From NCBI GenBank assembly GCA_016875225.1, contig VGRW01000007.1, positions 1 to 64,000 of the forward strand: DNA of 64,000 bases, in the 5' to 3' direction. The notes below the pieces were generated by a model. That model saw nothing but the letters and a program-made list of their open reading frames with translations. It was not told the origin of the DNA and searched no databases. The stretch is from Deltaproteobacteria bacterium (lineage in GTDB: Bacteria > Myxococcota_A > UBA9160 > SZUA-336). A program made the translations under genes and the position numbers. The stretch's first letter is position 1. Every line of letters begins with the position of its first letter. Below are positions 43,481 to 54,549 of this stretch, piece after piece.

Positions 43481-43579
<99 letters not shown>

Positions 43580-44320: not shown

Positions 44321-44326
44321 ATTCTA
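44321..44326 (-). promoter_or_regulatory. Candidate -10 element of the SCP2 gene (TAGAAT)
   Basis: On the minus strand TAGAAT is six bases before GTG 44314 and overlaps the stop codon of the EAL gene. The geometry is the same as at 43605, only ~0.7 kb away. Confidence 0.45.
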
Positions 44327-45673
44327 TCGCGGCCTGCCCGGGGCCAGGGCCCTGGATGCGCCGCTCGGCGTCGAGCCGCCGCGCCCCAGGTAGAAGCCCT
44401 GTCCGAACTCGATGCCGAGCGTGCGGATCACCGACAGCTCCTGCGCGGTCTCGATGCCCTCGGCGATCACCTGCGAGCCCATCTTCGCGGAGAGCGACTG
44501 GAGTCCGCGCAGCACCTCCTGCTTCTCGGGGCTGTCCTCGATGCTCCGCACCAGCGACATGTCGATCTTCAGGAAGTCGGGCTGCAGCTCGAGCGCGGCC
44601 TCCAGGCTGGAGAAGCCGGAGCCGGTGTCGTCGAGCGCGATCCGGAAGCCGAGCCCCGAGAAGTGGTCGATCGCCTCGCGGAAGATCGGGAAATTCGAGA
44701 TCGCCTGGCGCTCGGAGATCTCGAGCACCAGATTGCGCGGACCGAGCCCGAGCTCGGCGAGCGTCTCGCACACGTGCGCGGCCTGGAAGTCGGGGTCCTG
44801 GATGCAGGTGGGCAGGATGTTCAGGAACAGCAGCTGATCCGCCGCGATTCCGCGCGCGTTCGAGAGCGCGCGCCGTCTGCACAGGCTGTCGAGCTCGTAC
44901 TCGCGGTCGAAGAGCTCGGCGGTGCCGAAGAGCGCCATCGGCGTCTCGAGCCCCGTGCCGGCGGGCCCCCGCGAGAGCGCCTCGTAGCCGAGCACCGCAT
45001 TCGTCGCCAGAGCCACGATCGGCTCGAATACCGTCGTCACCGTCTGCTCGAGCAGGATCTTCTCGAGCATGCCGTTGCGCTCGCGTCGGGATCGCTCGTG
45101 CTCGAAGCGCGCGTCCTCGAGGGTTCGGTCGATCAGATGCCGGAGCTGCGCCTCGGGGCGCTGGAACGGCCGGTGCAGCACGAAGCCCGCGCCGACCGCG
45201 AGCTCGGGCACGCGGTTCAGGTAGGGATAGACGACGCGCTTTAGCCCTTGTGAGGCCCAGGCCCGAAGCTCGGCGGAGACCCGCGGCAGATCGTGCAGGA
45301 AGAACTCGGCGTCGTCGCGAAGGCGCGGCATGAACACCAGAAGGTGTTCCTCCTCGAGTGCGCCCGAAGCGAGAAGCATCTCCTCGCCGATCGCGCTCTC
45401 CACGCGCGCTCGAACGCCTTCGGCGAGCGCCTCGATCGAGCTGCGGAACGCGCGTGGCCCGTGGAGCTTCTCGATCGCGAGGAGCGGCGTGGCGTCGATC
45501 AGGAGCATCCCGAGCGCGCCCTGCTTCACCAGCCCCGTCGCGATCTCTCCGAGACGGCTACCGAGCGGCGCGAGCGCGCGGAGCGCGGAGAGCGTCGGCT
45601 CACGCTCCTCGGCCTGCGGCTCGGAATCGTCGATCTCGTCCGTCACACCCACCTCGGAATCCGCTGCGATCAC
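44324..45673 (-). CDS. c-di-GMP phosphodiesterase (EAL domain) with degenerate GGDEF-like region
   Basis: A 449-aa cytoplasmic signalling protein. Residues ~45-170 look like a GGDEF fold without the GGDEF motif. The EAL domain (~205-440) keeps the catalytic set: Glu231 (YEAL), Asn285 (LFLNI), Glu318 (LEISE), Asp348-Asp349 (IALDDTGSG, a variant of DDFGTG), Lys369 (FLKID) and Glu405 (AEGIET). It should therefore hydrolyse c-di-GMP. No membrane segment or REC domain is seen. The start is GTG 45673. An HD-GYP protein, the other c-di-GMP phosphodiesterase type, is 8 kb away. Confidence 0.9.
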   Translation of the reverse strand: MIAADSEVGVTDEIDDSEPQAEEREPTLSALRALAPLGSRLGEIATGLVKQGALGMLLIDATPLLAIEKLHGPRAFRSSIEALAEGVRARVESAIGEEMLLASGALEEEHLLVFMPRLRDDAEFFLHDLPRVSAELRAWASQGLKRVVYPYLNRVPELAVGAGFVLHRPFQRPEAQLRHLIDRTLEDARFEHERSRRERNGMLEKILLEQTVTTVFEPIVALATNAVLGYEALSRGPAGTGLETPMALFGTAELFDREYELDSLCRRRALSNARGIAADQLLFLNILPTCIQDPDFQAAHVCETLAELGLGPRNLVLEISERQAISNFPIFREAIDHFSGLGFRIALDDTGSGFSSLEAALELQPDFLKIDMSLVRSIEDSPEKQEVLRGLQSLSAKMGSQVIAEGIETAQELSVIRTLGIEFGQGFYLGRGGSTPSGASRALAPGRPR

Positions 45674-47134: not shown

Positions 47135-49261
47135 CTACGGGTCCGCGGTCTTGGCCAGGTGCAGCGCGATCGTCTCGAGTAGCACCACGCGCTCGATCGG
47201 CTTGGTCGCGAAGGCGTCGCAGCCCGCGTCGAGACAGCGCTGTCGCTCGGAGGGAAGCGCGTGAGCGGTGAGCGCGATGATCGGCCCGGTGTAGCCGCTC
47301 TCGCGCAGGCGGCGCGTCGCCTCGTATCCGTCGAGCACCGGCATCTGCACGTCCATCAGGATCACGCGGAAGGGCCGCTCCTCGTCGAGCGAGGCGAGCG
47401 CGAGCTCGACGCCGATCGAGCCGTTCTCCGCGGTCGTCACCTCGAACCCGGCGCGCTCGAGCACGTGGCGGATCACGCGCTGGTTGTCGGGGCCGTCCTC
47501 GACCAGCAGGACCCGACCGCTGGCGCGCAGCTTCTCGAGCGCGCGTCGCATTCGCCCGGTGCTCGGCGTGTCCGATTCCTGGCTCCCGGGAACGCCGCCC
47601 GCCTCGTCGATGGGGTGCGCGGGAACGCGAACGCAGAAATCGCTGCCCTTGCCGACCACGCTCGTGGCCGAGATCGCGCCGCCGAGCCGCTCGACGATGC
47701 GCTTGGTGATCGCCAGCCCCAGCCCGGTGCCGCCGAAACGACGCGTCATCGAGCTATCGCCCTGGCGGAACGGCTCGAAGATCTCGGCGAGCACCGCGTC
47801 GTCGATGCCGATCCCGGTGTCGCGCACGCAGAACTCCAGCGTTCGGTCCGCGTCGTCGTAGCGGGCGATCACGCGGACCGAGCCTGCGGAGGTGAACTTC
47901 ACCGCATTGCCGACCAGGTTCAGCAGGATCTGGCGCAGGCGGACCGGGTCGGAGAGCAGCCGATCCGGAATCGGGCCGTCGAGCTCCAGGACGAGCTCGA
48001 CGCGCTTCTCGCTCGCGCGCGGGCGGAGCAGGTCGACCACGTCGCCGAAGATCCGCGCGGGGGCGCACGGCACCTCCTCGATCTCGAGCCGATTCGCCTC
48101 GATCTTCGAGAAGTCGAGGATGTCGTTCAGGATCTCCAGAAGATAGGCGCCGTTGCGCCGGATGGTCCGGAGCGCGTCCTGCCGCTCGACGGGGGTGGAG
48201 GCTTCGTCCTCGAGCAGGATGTCGGTGAAGCCGAGGATCGCCGTCATCGGCGTGCGGATCTCGTGGCTCATGTTGGCGAGGAACTCGGTCTTGGCCGCCG
48301 CCGCCTGCTCGGCCTTGCGCCGCGAGCGCTCGAGATCCGCGTTCGCGCGCTTGAGCGCGCGCGCGTAGCCGCGCAGGCGCTGCTCCTCGCGCCGCCGGCG
48401 CTCGATGTCGCGCAGAACCACGGTGTGAAGCCGCTCGCCCGCGAGATCGAACGAGCAGATCGTGACCGCGACGGGAACCGTCGCCCCGCCCGGCGCGTGG
48501 GCGGTGAGCTCGAGCTGCGCGCCGGCGTCGAAGGCCGAGCTCGGATTCCCGCCCCCGATCTCCGACGCCGCGCCCTCGAGATCGGGCAGAAGCTCGGCGA
48601 GCGCGGCGCCCGCGAGCCAGATCGGGTCGGTCCGGAACAGCGCGCAGGCCGCAGCGTTGTGGAAGGCGACGGTGCCATCGCTGCGGACGACGATCATCGC
48701 GTCCGTCATCGACTTGAGGATCCCGCGGGTCAGCGCCTCGCTGGCCTCGGGCTCGGCCGAGAAGCGCATCTGCATCAGCTCGGTCGCGGCCCGGCCCGCG
48801 CTGGCGCGCAGGATCGACGGATCGTCGGCCGCCGAAGGCAGCGGACCGTCGTGCATCGCGCAGAGCTCGCCGAGCACCTGCCCGTCCGCCGCGAAGACGA
48901 CCGCACCCACGTAGCCGCGAACGCCGTGCTCGCGCAGCGACGCGTCGTCGGGAAAGACTTCCTGGGCGCGGTCGCGGAAGACGCAGAACTCCGCGCCGAT
49001 CGCGTCGGCCGCGGCGCTTCCGGCGAGCGGCTGCCGGGCACCGCGCGTGACGCCCGCACCGTCCCAGAGCGCCACCGTCTCGAGCGAGTCGTCGGCGTTC
49101 AGCACGGAGATGCGCGCGAAGCGCGTTCCGAGCGCCTGCGCGAGCCCCTTCACCAGCGCGGGGAAGAACGCCTCGCCACGCGCCAGAGAGGTATCTTCGA
49201 GAAGCGCACGAATGCGCTGCTCCGCCCTGACATCCACTGCGGTGGGTCCCCTCACTCGCAT
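47135..49261 (-). CDS. Hybrid sensor histidine kinase (GAF-PAS-HisKA-HATPase-REC)
   Basis: A soluble 708-aa hybrid kinase. GAF-like domain at ~15-165, PAS at ~175-290 (ILKSMTDAMIVVRSDGTVAFHN), coiled coil, HisKA with His333 (FLANMSHEIRTPM), N box RLRQILLNLVGNAVKF, G boxes DTGIGI and FGGTGLGLAI, and a C-terminal receiver with Asp637 (VILMDVQMPVLDG). No membrane segment. ATG 49261 is chosen because the longer open frame upstream runs through tRNA-Leu. The output partner is unknown; no Hpt domain protein is visible here. Confidence 0.92.
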   Translation of the reverse strand: MRVRGPTAVDVRAEQRIRALLEDTSLARGEAFFPALVKGLAQALGTRFARISVLNADDSLETVALWDGAGVTRGARQPLAGSAAADAIGAEFCVFRDRAQEVFPDDASLREHGVRGYVGAVVFAADGQVLGELCAMHDGPLPSAADDPSILRASAGRAATELMQMRFSAEPEASEALTRGILKSMTDAMIVVRSDGTVAFHNAAACALFRTDPIWLAGAALAELLPDLEGAASEIGGGNPSSAFDAGAQLELTAHAPGGATVPVAVTICSFDLAGERLHTVVLRDIERRRREEQRLRGYARALKRANADLERSRRKAEQAAAAKTEFLANMSHEIRTPMTAILGFTDILLEDEASTPVERQDALRTIRRNGAYLLEILNDILDFSKIEANRLEIEEVPCAPARIFGDVVDLLRPRASEKRVELVLELDGPIPDRLLSDPVRLRQILLNLVGNAVKFTSAGSVRVIARYDDADRTLEFCVRDTGIGIDDAVLAEIFEPFRQGDSSMTRRFGGTGLGLAITKRIVERLGGAISATSVVGKGSDFCVRVPAHPIDEAGGVPGSQESDTPSTGRMRRALEKLRASGRVLLVEDGPDNQRVIRHVLERAGFEVTTAENGSIGVELALASLDEERPFRVILMDVQMPVLDGYEATRRLRESGYTGPIIALTAHALPSERQRCLDAGCDAFATKPIERVVLLETIALHLAKTADP

Positions 49262-51356: not shown

Positions 51357-52079
51357 ATGCGCGCGATCGAACTTCTCGGACGCCACTGGCCGGAGCTCGG
51401 GCCGCTCGCGCTCGCGGAGCTCGACGGTGGCGGGGCGCTGGCGATCTCGCGCGGCGCGGCGCCGAAGACCTACGCGCACAAGGATCCGAACGAGGATGCC
51501 GCGCTGCTGGTGCGCCTTCCGGCGGGCGTGCTGCTCGCCGTCGCCGACGGCTTCAACGGCGTCGAGGCGGCCGAGCTCGCGATCGCGCGCACGCGCGCGC
51601 TCGCGGAGCCGCTCCTGCTCGCGAGCGGCGCCGCGTTTCGCGAGCGCGTCTGCGAGCTGCTCGACGACGTGCGCACTCGGCTGCCCAGGGGCAGCGAGTC
51701 GCGCTCCTGCCTGGTGCTCGCGGCGCTTCGCGGCGCGAGCTGCGAGCTGGCGAGCTTCGGCGACGCGTTCGCGTTTCGCGCCGGCTCGCCGCTCCCGCTG
51801 ATGCAGCAGAACACGATTCTCGTCGGCAGCGAGCGCGGCCCGGGCCAGATCGCGCCGGCCCGCTGGCACACGAGCTTCGAGCGCGCGAAGCGAGAGCGGA
51901 TCGCGCTGGTCTCGGACGGCGTGATCAACTTCACGCCCGATCCCTCGCTGATCCCGGGCTCGCTTTCCGGATTCGCGACGGATCTCGAGTGCGCGCGCGA
52001 GCTCGCGCTCGCCGCGCTTCGCGCGGGCGCGGCCGACAACGTCGCGGTCGCGGCGTTCTCCGGAGACACCGACGCCTGA
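51357..52079 (+). CDS. PP2C-type serine/threonine phosphatase
   Basis: A 240-aa PPM-family phosphatase. Metal-binding acidic residues lie in KDPNEDAALLV (Asp47), LLAVADGFNG (Asp64), ALVSDGVINF and GAADNVAVAAF, the standard order of PP2C motifs. The domain is compact, without sensor or membrane parts. Such phosphatases act on phosphorylated Ser/Thr, including the STAS antagonists of partner-switching systems. A STAS protein is encoded 2 kb downstream on the same strand. Confidence 0.82.
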   Translation: MRAIELLGRHWPELGPLALAELDGGGALAISRGAAPKTYAHKDPNEDAALLVRLPAGVLLAVADGFNGVEAAELAIARTRALAEPLLLASGAAFRERVCELLDDVRTRLPRGSESRSCLVLAALRGASCELASFGDAFAFRAGSPLPLMQQNTILVGSERGPGQIAPARWHTSFERAKRERIALVSDGVINFTPDPSLIPGSLSGFATDLECARELALAALRAGAADNVAVAAFSGDTDA

Positions 52080-52408
52080 CGCCCTTCGCCGCGTCTCGCG
52101 TCCGAGACGTCCCGGATCCGGGACACGCATCGGCAGGCGCAGGTGGCGGGACCGGCCGGCGGCCCGCGCGAGGCGCGGAGATCTGCGCGGAGCTGCGCCT
52201 CCACGCGATCGCAAGGCCGGCACCTGGCCGCGCAGCTCTGCGGCAACTGCGCGCAACTCGGTCCCGGCGTCGGGAATCGCTTGCCGGCGGCAACGCGGGC
52301 GCAGCGCTCGCGCAACTCGCGGGCGACTCCCCGCGCGGGGCGCCGAATCCGCGCCGCGGGCGCGCGCTTCGCCCGGTGCAGGCACGCCGCTTGAAGTGAG
52401 CGGGGACC
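52080..52408. other. 329-bp non-coding region with two adjacent inverted repeats
   Basis: No convincing gene is seen here; a short open frame within is arginine/alanine-rich and typical of GC-rich noise. At its 5' end, GTCTCG-CGTC-CGAGAC (52093-52108) is followed at once by a perfect 16-bp palindrome, GTCCCGGATCCGGGAC (52109-52124). The stems could end the PP2C transcript or serve as a regulatory site for the HD-GYP gene. GCGGGGA before ATG 52409 is that gene's ribosome-binding site. It is the longest gap in the window. Confidence 0.55.
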
Positions 52409-53572
52409 ATGTCCGTCCCCCGCGAGCCCGTCGAGAAGCCGGGCGTGCTCTTCGTCGACGACGAGGTCAACATCCTGAAGGCGATCACGCGCCTGTTCCG
52501 CCAGGAGCCGGTGCGCGTCTACACGGCGAATTCCTCGGCGCAGGCGCTCGCGCTTCTCGAAACCGAGTCGATCCAGGTCGTGGTCTCCGATCAGCGCATG
52601 CCGGGCGGACCCGGCGTGAAGCTGCTCGCGCTGGTGCGCGAACGCTTCCCGGAGATCGTGCGCATCATGCTGACGGGGCACACCGAGATCGACGTCGCGA
52701 TCGAGGCGATCAACCACGGCCAGATCTACCGCCTGATGACGAAGCCCTGGGACGATCACGAGCTGCGCGCCACGGTGCGCCAGGCCCTCGACGACTGGTC
52801 GATGCGCGAGGAGATCCGCCGCCTGAACCAGATCGCGCAGCTCCAGAACGCCGAGCTGCAAGCGATGAACGCCTCGCTCGAGCAGAAGGTCGACGAGCGC
52901 ACGCGCGAGCTGCAGCTCGCGAACCTCGAGCTGCGCAAGGCATACCTGCCCACCGTGCGCGCGCTCTCGGAGGCGGTCGACGCGAAGGATCCGTACACGC
53001 GCGGCCACTCCGAACGCGTCGGCGTCTACGCGTCGCGAATCGCGCGAGAGCTCGGCTGCGGTCTCGACTTCATCGAGCGGATCTACCTGGCCGGCCTGCT
53101 GCACGACATCGGCAAGATCGGCATCCCCGACGCGATCATCGGCAAGCCCGAGCGCCTCTCGCGCGAGGAGTACGCGCAGATGAAGCGCCACCCGGAGATC
53201 GGCGCGCGGATCCTCGAGCCGGTCGCCTTCCTCGCCGACGTCGTTCCGTGCGTGCGCCACCACCACGAGTGGTACGACGGCTCCTCGAACGGCTACCCGT
53301 CGCAGCTCCGCGCCGCGCAGATTCCGTACCCCAGCCGCATCATCCTGGTCGCCGACACCGTCGAGGCGATGACCTCCGATCGCCCGTACCGCAACGCGCT
53401 GCCGTTCGAACGCGTGATCGAGGAGATCGCGACCTTCAGCGGCACGCAGTTCGACCCGGCGGTCGCCGACGCCTTCATCCGCATCGCGGAGCGCGAGGAG
53501 GAGGCCTTCATCGAGACCGCGTCCAAGTTCGACATCGAGGCCTTCGTGCGCGGCACCTGGACGGCGCGATGA
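52409..53572 (+). CDS. Response regulator with HD-GYP domain (c-di-GMP phosphodiesterase)
   Basis: A 387-aa RpfG-like protein. The receiver (12-125) has Asp17-Asp18, phospho-acceptor Asp61 (VVVSDQRMPGG), Thr89 and Lys112 (MTKPW). A coiled coil (~130-180) links it to the HD-GYP domain (180-387), with HD at 232-233 (LLHDIGKIGIPD), the metal ligands in HHHEWYD (284-290) and the GYP tripeptide at 295-297 (SSNGYPSQL). It should degrade c-di-GMP when phosphorylated. Its stop overlaps the V4R-STAS gene, so the two act together. Confidence 0.93.
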   Translation: MSVPREPVEKPGVLFVDDEVNILKAITRLFRQEPVRVYTANSSAQALALLETESIQVVVSDQRMPGGPGVKLLALVRERFPEIVRIMLTGHTEIDVAIEAINHGQIYRLMTKPWDDHELRATVRQALDDWSMREEIRRLNQIAQLQNAELQAMNASLEQKVDERTRELQLANLELRKAYLPTVRALSEAVDAKDPYTRGHSERVGVYASRIARELGCGLDFIERIYLAGLLHDIGKIGIPDAIIGKPERLSREEYAQMKRHPEIGARILEPVAFLADVVPCVRHHHEWYDGSSNGYPSQLRAAQIPYPSRIILVADTVEAMTSDRPYRNALPFERVIEEIATFSGTQFDPAVADAFIRIAEREEEAFIETASKFDIEAFVRGTWTAR

Positions 53573-54549
53573 GCCGCGCGCGGGACGAGGACATGGACGG
53601 GGTCGAGGTGCCGCTCGAGCTTCGCGGCGCGTTCGAGAACCCCGACGAGCTCGCGCGCCTGCGGCGCAACGCCTTCGAGGGCGTGGGGCGACCCTACGCG
53701 GACGGGATCCTGTACGGGATCGGTCTCTCCCGCGGCCTGCTCGACGGGCTGCTCGTCGCGCGCCGCTTCGGCGCCGCGCTCGGCGGCGCGCCGCGCCAGA
53801 GCGGCCCCGGGCTGCCGATGGTCTTCAGGCCCGGTCGCATCCGCGCGGATCGCGGCTTCGGCGGGGAGCTCCAGGATTCGGTCGAGGCAGCGATCCACCT
53901 GCGCGAGCTCGGTCCCGACCCCGATCCCGTCTGTCACGTGAGCGCGGGCTACGGCTCCGGCTGGTACTCGGCACTGCTCGGCGAGTTCCAGCTCGTGCGC
54001 GAGCTGGCGTGCTCCGCGCAGGGCGCGCACGCGTGCAGCTTCGACGCGCGTCCGGCCGCGGCCTGGCTCGACGCCGGCGACGCCTGGGCCGCCACGCGCC
54101 TGGCCTACCTCGACTACGACGCGATGCGATCGGCCGCGCTGGAGCGGCTCGCGCAGGACGTCGACGAGTCGGAGGGCTCGATGATGGGCGCGTTCGACCC
54201 GCTCTCGCCCGCGGTCCACGTCTGGGGTCCGGTGATGATCCTCCCCTACTCGGGCGCCGCCGACTCGCTCGAGGCGGTCGAGACGATTCTCGGCGACCTC
54301 GGTCCGGGCGCGCTCCGCGTCGCCGTGCTCGACCTCACGGGCGCGCGAATCGGGCCGCTCGAAGCGACCGGGCTGCTTCGGCTGCTCGAGGTGCTCGAGG
54401 CGAACAAGCTCGAGAGCATCGTGGTCGGGCCGCCGTGGCTCGCGGACCCGGCCTGGCTGCCCCGCTCGGCGACGCTCTCGCTGCCGCTTCGCGCGGCCGA
54501 GATCTCCGAAGGGATCCGCCTGGCGTTCCAGCTGGCGCGCTTCGTCTAG
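53569..54549 (+). CDS. V4R-STAS domain protein, putative signalling switch
   Basis: A 326-aa protein. Residues ~35-160 match the V4R small-molecule-binding fold: YADGILYGIGLSRGLLDGLL and the typical end GYGSGWYSALLGEF then ACSAQGAHACSF, with Cys122/148/156 as possible metal ligands. Residues ~213-325 form a STAS domain resembling RsbR (VAVLDLTGARIGPLEATGLL), with Thr267 near the position that is phosphorylated in RsbR/RsbS. ATG 53569 overlaps the HD-GYP stop as ATGA. The pairing suggests that ligand sensing feeds into a phosphorylation switch; the partner kinase is not visible. Confidence 0.72.
   Translation: MSRARDEDMDGVEVPLELRGAFENPDELARLRRNAFEGVGRPYADGILYGIGLSRGLLDGLLVARRFGAALGGAPRQSGPGLPMVFRPGRIRADRGFGGELQDSVEAAIHLRELGPDPDPVCHVSAGYGSGWYSALLGEFQLVRELACSAQGAHACSFDARPAAAWLDAGDAWAATRLAYLDYDAMRSAALERLAQDVDESEGSMMGAFDPLSPAVHVWGPVMILPYSGAADSLEAVETILGDLGPGALRVAVLDLTGARIGPLEATGLLRLLEVLEANKLESIVVGPPWLADPAWLPRSATLSLPLRAAEISEGIRLAFQLARFV

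What the first reader, a model, noticed from the sequence alone, without database searches (positions are those of the whole stretch)
51357..54549. Possible signalling module: PP2C phosphatase, HD-GYP response regulator and V4R-STAS protein
Three consecutive genes join phosphoprotein dephosphorylation, c-di-GMP breakdown and a ligand-binding STAS switch with a Thr near the RsbR/RsbS phosphosite. The last two overlap as ATGA. This would couple a two-component signal and a small molecule sensed by V4R to partner switching. The combination is not one I recognise as described.
Basis: inference. Interest (0 to 1): 0.6.

Follow-up and report, generated by a model that had tools for sequence, protein, structure and literature searches.

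The report
Ligand sensor wired to c-di-GMP breakdown
Two overlapping genes, kept side by side throughout a little-known class of uncultured bacteria, encode an enzyme predicted to destroy the signalling molecule c-di-GMP and a small-molecule sensor built from stress-sensor (stressosome) parts that has lost its usual phosphorylation switch; the neighbouring phosphatase gene is probably not part of the unit.

Summary
The genes are real. In 55 of 56 public loci with enough upstream sequence the HD-GYP gene lies directly before V4R-STAS; the surrounding genes differ between the window's family and the rest of the class. Outside the window's family a third gene (DUF4388-DnaJ-TPR) follows in 51 of 51 loci. 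The PP2C gene is linked only in part of the window's family. No RsbS was found in this genome; the best RsbT/RsbW-type hits are ordinary histidine kinases. In other Myxococcota, V4R-STAS proteins with the phosphosite intact sit in rsbR-S-T-X operons (4 loci). Best reading: a stressosome-type sensor moved to c-di-GMP control, probably acting without phosphorylation on its operon-partner phosphodiesterase. Physical contact, ligand and activity are inferred.

The parts
52409..53572 (+). REC-HD-GYP response regulator (core gene 1)
   Evidence: Pfam Response_reg 9e-21 and HD_5 3.7e-33; 26-member alignment at 74% mean column identity with D61, T89, K112, H200, H232-D233, K236, H261, H284-H286, G295-Y296-P297 invariant and D316 invariant
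52445..52777 (+). receiver domain of the regulator
   Evidence: Pfam residues 13-123
52961..53464 (+). HD-GYP domain, predicted cyclic-dinucleotide phosphodiesterase
   Evidence: Pfam residues 185-352; profile matches to V-cGAP3 5z7c 4.9e-50, PmGH 4mcw 1.5e-39 and PA4781 4r8z 1.5e-24
53569..54549 (+). V4R-STAS protein (core gene 2)
   Evidence: ATGA overlap with the regulator; orthologues in 48 of 60 relatives and 60 public contigs; AlphaFold model mean pLDDT 83.9
53614..54072 (+). XylR_N/V4R-type sensor domain (residues 16-168) with zinc site C122, E145, C148, C156
   Evidence: profile match to PoxR 1.4e-25 and MopR; fold match to PoxR/MopR/DmpR; ligand columns conserved in 57-58 of 58
54205..54543 (+). 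RsbR-type STAS domain (residues 213-325); phosphosite column is Pro263, Thr267 lies four residues downstream
   Evidence: profile match to stressosome RsbR; fold match to 7b0u, 7o0i, 6jhk; column counts
51357..52079 (+). PP2C-like phosphatase; neighbour, probably not part of the module
   Evidence: metal-ligand Asp conserved in five family homologues; at this place only in part of family f1; next to a different small gene elsewhere in the class
52080..52408 (.). 329-bp gap between PP2C and the regulator
   Evidence: no gene called there, no Rfam match, no promoter- or terminator-like site by simple scan

Best explanation
A two-gene signalling module. The second protein is an RsbR-type stressosome sensor whose N-terminal domain is a zinc-containing V4R/XylR_N small-molecule sensor. 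In this bacterial class its STAS domain has lost the phospho-acceptor, and the protein has been separated from RsbS/RsbT and fixed in an operon with a receiver-HD-GYP phosphodiesterase. Most likely a hydrophobic or aromatic metabolite binds the V4R domain, the change passes through the linker helix (residues 183-204) to the STAS domain, and the STAS domain acts on the HD-GYP response regulator by direct, phosphorylation-independent contact, gating c-di-GMP (or 3'3'-cGAMP) hydrolysis together with phosphorylation of Asp61 by an unidentified histidine kinase. Shown here: gene pairing, domain identities, intact phosphodiesterase and receiver residues, intact zinc site, loss of the STAS phosphosite, no RsbS in this genome. 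Inferred: physical contact, ligand, direction of control, enzymatic activity.
For: The regulator lies directly upstream of V4R-STAS in 55 of 56 public loci; regulator and V4R-STAS occur in 47 and 48 of 60 relatives and are missing together in ten. Between the window's family and the rest of the class the flanking genes differ while the pair stays. ATGA-type 4-bp overlap in the window and in L031, L036, L037. STAS is RsbR-type by profile and fold. The phosphosite column is Ser/Thr in 6 of 58, against 10 of 12 in V4R-STAS proteins from outside the class, four of which lie in rsbR-S-T-X operons. RsbS is absent from the own genome and from all but four or five of 60 relatives. Catalytic and receiver residues are invariant. 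Precedents: HsbA, an anti-anti-sigma factor, binds the diguanylate cyclase HsbD (PMC5085249); the Moorella stressosome controls c-di-GMP through its RsbT-like kinase (cited in PMC4976288); B. subtilis stressosome signalling persists without the RsbR/RsbS phosphosites (PMC3944199).
Against: No interaction or assay data; co-operon position does not prove contact. Two relatives keep V4R-STAS without the regulator (G004, contig L035; G041, contig L163), so V4R-STAS may have another partner. The phenol-anchoring His of MopR is lost in the whole class and Trp134 is Leu in the window, so the ligand is unknown and the pocket could be vestigial. STAS phosphosite alignment is uncertain by one residue (Gly or Glu in most of the class). 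In most of the class the third gene DUF4388-DnaJ-TPR could be the real STAS partner.
Confidence: 0.5

Rival explanations
1. Co-operonic but parallel: the HD-GYP regulator answers to an unlinked histidine kinase, and V4R-STAS works on a different partner, such as the DUF4388-DnaJ-TPR protein that follows it in most of the class; the genes are co-expressed because they serve the same process.
For: DUF4388-DnaJ-TPR follows V4R-STAS in 51 of 51 loci outside the window's family; G041 keeps V4R-STAS plus that gene without the regulator; the receiver domain is complete and a hybrid histidine kinase lies at 47135-49261.
Against: In the window's family the third gene is missing from the locus while the pair persists; translational overlap of the pair; no case of the regulator without V4R-STAS could be shown.
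Confidence: 0.27
2. Classical partner switching: V4R-STAS is phosphorylated at a Ser/Thr by an unlinked RsbT/RsbW-like kinase and dephosphorylated by the adjacent PP2C.
For: RsbR-type STAS; PP2C is close and has its metal-binding Asp residues; Ser233 aligns with the RsbR T171 position.
Against: Thr267 is Thr in 1 of 58, the T205-equivalent is Ser/Thr in 6 of 58 and Pro in the window, the T171-equivalent is Ser/Thr in 20 of 58; no RsbS in the genome; the HATPase_c_2 hits over the cut-off are histidine kinases; PP2C is not linked in most of the class.
Confidence: 0.07
3. Silent stressosome shell: V4R-STAS assembles with other STAS proteins into a stressosome-like particle and affects c-di-GMP only indirectly.
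For: STAS fold matches stressosome cores; orphan RsbR paralogues are common in other Myxococcota.
Against: No RsbS in this genome; the Pfam STAS search found four proteins, three in long frames (588-643 aa, SulP-like by size) and one of 390 aa.
Confidence: 0.08
4. A three-gene module that needs the PP2C, specific to the window's family.
For: PP2C lies directly upstream in G000 and G009, upstream with one extra gene in G001, and beside V4R-STAS in G004.
Against: G006 and G007 have the pair without PP2C, G005 has PP2C on another contig; elsewhere PP2C sits beside a small gene; 329-bp gap.
Confidence: 0.08

Closest known systems
Stressosome sensor RsbR (RsbR-RsbS-RsbT, e.g. Listeria 7b0u, Vibrio 7o0i)
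   Same: N-terminal sensor + linker + RsbR-type STAS; V4R-STAS homologues with the phosphosite lie in rsbR-S-T-X operons in other Myxococcota
   Different: phospho-acceptor lost, RsbS absent from the genome and RsbT not found, operon partner is an HD-GYP response regulator; V4R as a stressosome sensor domain not found in the papers searched
Moorella thermoacetica stressosome that controls c-di-GMP (Quin et al. 2012, cited in PMC4976288; PDB 3ztb)
   Same: stressosome-type STAS protein feeding c-di-GMP signalling
   Different: there the RsbT kinase homologue phosphorylates a diguanylate cyclase; here no such kinase was found and the enzyme is a phosphodiesterase
HsbA-HsbD of Pseudomonas aeruginosa (PMC5085249)
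   Same: an anti-anti-sigma (STAS-type) protein acts on a c-di-GMP enzyme
   Different: HsbA is a small single-domain protein in a kinase/phosphatase partner switch (own knowledge) and targets a cyclase; here the STAS carries its own sensor and lacks the phosphosite
MopR/DmpR/PoxR phenol sensors
   Same: XylR_N/V4R fold with the same Cys/Glu/Cys/Cys zinc site
   Different: no AAA+ or DNA-binding part; phenol-anchoring His absent in the class, Trp absent in the window; output is STAS
NosP/NosK/NosR nitric-oxide systems (PMC12570481; NCBIfam NF053512)
   Same: separate sensor protein encoded with a REC-HD-GYP regulator; the regulator scores 357.7 bits
   Different: below NosR's cut-off (400); no adjacent NosP or kinase; HD motif intact here, degenerate in the Burkholderia NosR

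Membership tests
Stressosome RsbR | C-terminal RsbR-type STAS domain | tested here: met
   profile 7o0i 2.1e-5, Foldseek 7b0u 3.6e-4 and 7o0i 6.1e-4
Stressosome RsbR | N-terminal sensor domain | tested here: met
   V4R/XylR_N
Stressosome RsbR | phosphorylatable Thr in STAS (RsbRA T171/T205) | tested here: not met
   T205-equivalent: Pro263 in the window, Ser/Thr in 6 of 58; T171-equivalent: Ser233 in the window, Ser/Thr in 20 of 58
Stressosome RsbR | linked or co-occurring RsbS and RsbT | tested here: not met
   no RsbS in the own genome, four of 60 relatives with clear hits; HATPase_c_2 hits over the cut-off are histidine kinases; weaker hits were not examined one by one
Partner-switching module (RsbV/RsbW, SpoIIAA/AB, HsbA/HsbR) | conserved phospho-Ser/Thr plus dedicated HATPase_c_2 kinase | tested here: not met
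HD-GYP c-di-GMP phosphodiesterase | HD and GYP motifs with metal ligands | tested here: met
   H200, H232-D233, K236, H261, H284-H286, G295-Y296-P297, D316 invariant in 26 of 26; GYP loop two residues longer than in the PDB relatives
HD-GYP c-di-GMP phosphodiesterase | hydrolysis of c-di-GMP | not testable with these tools
   best PDB relative is the 3'3'-cGAMP-specific 5z7c, so the substrate is open
V4R/XylR_N aromatic sensor | Cys/Glu/Cys/Cys zinc site | tested here: met
   C122, E145, C148, C156 in 57-58 of 58; four-ligand site described in PMC7264223 and PMC10715001
V4R/XylR_N aromatic sensor | His106/Trp134 phenol anchors | tested here: not met
   Pro83/Leu101 in the window; the class has no His among the common residues at the first, Trp in 51 of 58 at the second
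NosR (NCBIfam NF053512) | curated score cut-off 400 bits | tested here: not met
   357.7 bits
PP2C phosphatase (51357-52079) | metal-binding Asp motifs | tested here: met
   D47, D64, D136, D187, D227-N228 conserved in five homologues; Pfam score below cut-off

The most novel reading that the evidence does not exclude
A stressosome sensor protein has left the RsbS/RsbT phosphorylation cycle and become a ligand-operated, phosphorylation-independent regulator of one cyclic-dinucleotide phosphodiesterase, so that one enzyme integrates a two-component input (Asp61) and a metabolite input (V4R). The change happened once, at the base of a whole class of Myxococcota.
Probability: 0.38. Interest if true: 0.68.

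Novelty: new variant of a known kind. Interest (0 to 1): 0.55.

Why it matters
It would show how a modular stress sensor can be moved from sigma-factor control to second-messenger control and why RsbR-type STAS domains without a phosphosite persist. It would add V4R (aromatic/zinc) sensors to the known input domains of stressosomes and give a defined two-protein system in which phosphorylation-independent STAS signalling can be tested directly. It also suggests a conserved c-di-GMP input for a bacterial class represented here only by metagenome assemblies.

Tried and rejected
RNA element or riboswitch in the 329-bp gap: no Rfam match; no promoter- or terminator-like site. RsbT/RsbW in the genome: the three HATPase_c_2 hits over the cut-off are histidine kinases. 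Third gene moved elsewhere in the window's family: only distant paralogues of about 630 aa, also present in G010, which lacks the pair. NosR membership: below cut-off. PMC9756655 seemed to link V4R and HD-GYP but 'V4R' there is part of an accession number. A first tree contained a wrong row, L162, after re-indexing of my gene calls; it was discarded and redone. Searches failed on coordinates or script errors and were repeated; one search was a report format error. The paper search for DUF4388/PATAN returned only place names among the papers listed. An early working guess that the gene at 44324-45508 was selA was wrong: it encodes an EAL-domain protein.

Full report
OBSERVATION. The three ORFs exist where stated. 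The HD-GYP regulator and the V4R protein overlap by ATGA; the PP2C gene ends 329 bp before the regulator. Pfam supports REC, HD-GYP and V4R above cut-off; PP2C_2 is below cut-off in the window protein, but close homologues keep the Asp motifs. The C-terminal STAS is invisible to Pfam in the window protein, reaches E <= 0.1 in 20 of 39 orthologues, and is established by a profile match to stressosome RsbR (7o0i, 2.1e-5) and by an AlphaFold model (mean pLDDT 83.9) whose fold matches PoxR/MopR/DmpR over the N-terminal half and RsbR/RsbS over the C-terminal half.

WHAT IS CONSERVED. A search of 60 relatives found V4R-STAS in 48 and the regulator in 47. Ten lack both. Discordant genomes are mainly contig edges (G003, G030); two are real: G004 (contig L035) and G041 (contig L163) have V4R-STAS without the regulator. 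No clear case of the regulator without V4R-STAS was seen. In 60 public contigs, nearly all labelled as MAGs and mostly as Deltaproteobacteria or Myxococcota (isolate names UBA9160, UBA4427, SZUA-336 and PRO3 suggest GTDB class UBA9160, an inference from memory), the regulator lies directly upstream in 55 of 56 loci with enough sequence, and a DUF4388-DnaJ-TPR gene (domains) directly downstream in 51 of 55; the four exceptions, L070-L073, belong to the window's family. The gene maps show that between that family and the rest of the class the flanking genes differ, while the pair stays. The regulator is far more conserved (74% mean column identity) than V4R-STAS (about 40%).

PP2C. It is linked to the pair only in part of the window's family (G000, G001, G009; beside V4R-STAS in G004). 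G006 and G007 have the pair without it, and G005 has it on another contig. Elsewhere in the class homologues are unlinked, often beside a 125-145 aa gene, thioredoxin-like 2Fe-2S in L155 (weak). I treat it as a neighbour.

PHOSPHOSITE. Aligned with RsbR from an rsb operon (L165) and with V4R-STAS from outside the class, the T205-equivalent column is Pro263 in the window and Gly 29, Ala 11, Glu 5, Thr 4, Asp 3, Pro 2, Ser 2, Asn 2 among 58 orthologues; the T171-equivalent is Ser233 in the window, Ala 29, Ser 17, Thr 3 overall; the Thr267 column is Thr once. The alignment around the site can slip by one residue, which would put Glu there in most of the class; neither alternative is phosphorylatable.

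ORIGIN. A phylum-wide profile search (284 genomes) found full-length V4R-STAS outside the class in only two genomes (G232, G269); a search of the class of G232 gave more. Their neighbourhoods show two arrangements: rsb operons with RsbS, a HATPase_c_2 kinase, a SpoIIE-type PP2C and a second HATPase_c_2 kinase in L160, L193, L195 and L199 (domains checked in L160), and orphans. The phosphosite is Thr or Ser in 10 of 12. A tree separates the class from these proteins with full support (100/100); it is unrooted, so the direction (stressosome first, c-di-GMP later) is the simpler reading and not proven. RsbS occurs clearly in only four of 60 relatives, with one marginal hit that lies in a V4R-STAS gene itself, and not in the window's genome.

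SENSOR AND ENZYME. The zinc ligands known from DmpR and MopR (PMC7264223, PMC10715001) correspond to C122, E145, C148 and C156 and are kept in 57-58 of 58. The phenol-anchoring His106 is lost in the class, Trp134 is kept in 51 of 58 but is Leu in the window, while three V4R-STAS from outside the class keep both. So the sensor fold is intact and its ligand is probably not phenol. The HD-GYP domain has all catalytic residues in every sequence and a GYP loop two residues longer than in PDB relatives; its best solved relative is the 3'3'-cGAMP phosphodiesterase V-cGAP3, so c-di-GMP is likely but not certain. The receiver has its Asp61, Thr89 and Lys112; no cognate kinase is fixed beside it. A hybrid histidine kinase at 47135-49261 on the other strand is a candidate only.

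MECHANISM. I favour ligand-gated, phosphorylation-independent control of the HD-GYP enzyme by the STAS domain. Precedents for each half exist: HsbA binds the diguanylate cyclase HsbD (PMC5085249); a Moorella stressosome feeds c-di-GMP signalling (as cited in PMC4976288); B. subtilis stressosomes signal without RsbR T171 and RsbS S59 phosphorylation (PMC3944199). The main rival is that the two proteins are co-expressed but act on different partners, with DUF4388-DnaJ-TPR as the STAS partner in most of the class.

NOVELTY. No paper in the searched library was found to join V4R with STAS, with stressosomes or with HD-GYP; that library omits most subscription journals. I class it as a new variant of a known kind.

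Noticed in passing
L160:1651-4766, L193, L195, L199: rsbR-S-T-X-like operons in other Myxococcota whose RsbR carries a V4R/XylR_N sensor with the phenol-anchoring His/Trp kept in most; two HATPase_c_2 kinases per operon. Possible aromatic-sensing stressosomes.
   Followed up: partly
window 43481-43575 (+): tRNA-Sec (Rfam RF01852, 75.6 bits): the organism probably uses selenocysteine.
   Followed up: no
window 44324-45508 (-): EAL-domain protein (Pfam 8e-48), a second candidate c-di-GMP phosphodiesterase about 7 kb from the HD-GYP gene.
   Followed up: no
window 47135-49261 (-): Hybrid histidine kinase (HisKA-HATPase_c-REC) about 3 kb from the HD-GYP regulator; homologues by blast cluster near the pair in only 7 loci.
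   Followed up: partly
L039:9008-10489 and 28 other loci: DUF4388-DnaJ-TPR protein of about 500 aa fixed downstream of V4R-STAS in the class except the window's family; function unknown.
   Followed up: partly
G057:C32:357-1265: V4R-STAS matched in two separate pieces, suggesting a frameshift or assembly error.
   Followed up: no
L155:1038-2289, L152:155-1278: PP2C homologues of the window's phosphatase lie beside a 125-145 aa gene (thioredoxin-like 2Fe-2S in L155, weak), a possible separate two-gene unit.
   Followed up: partly
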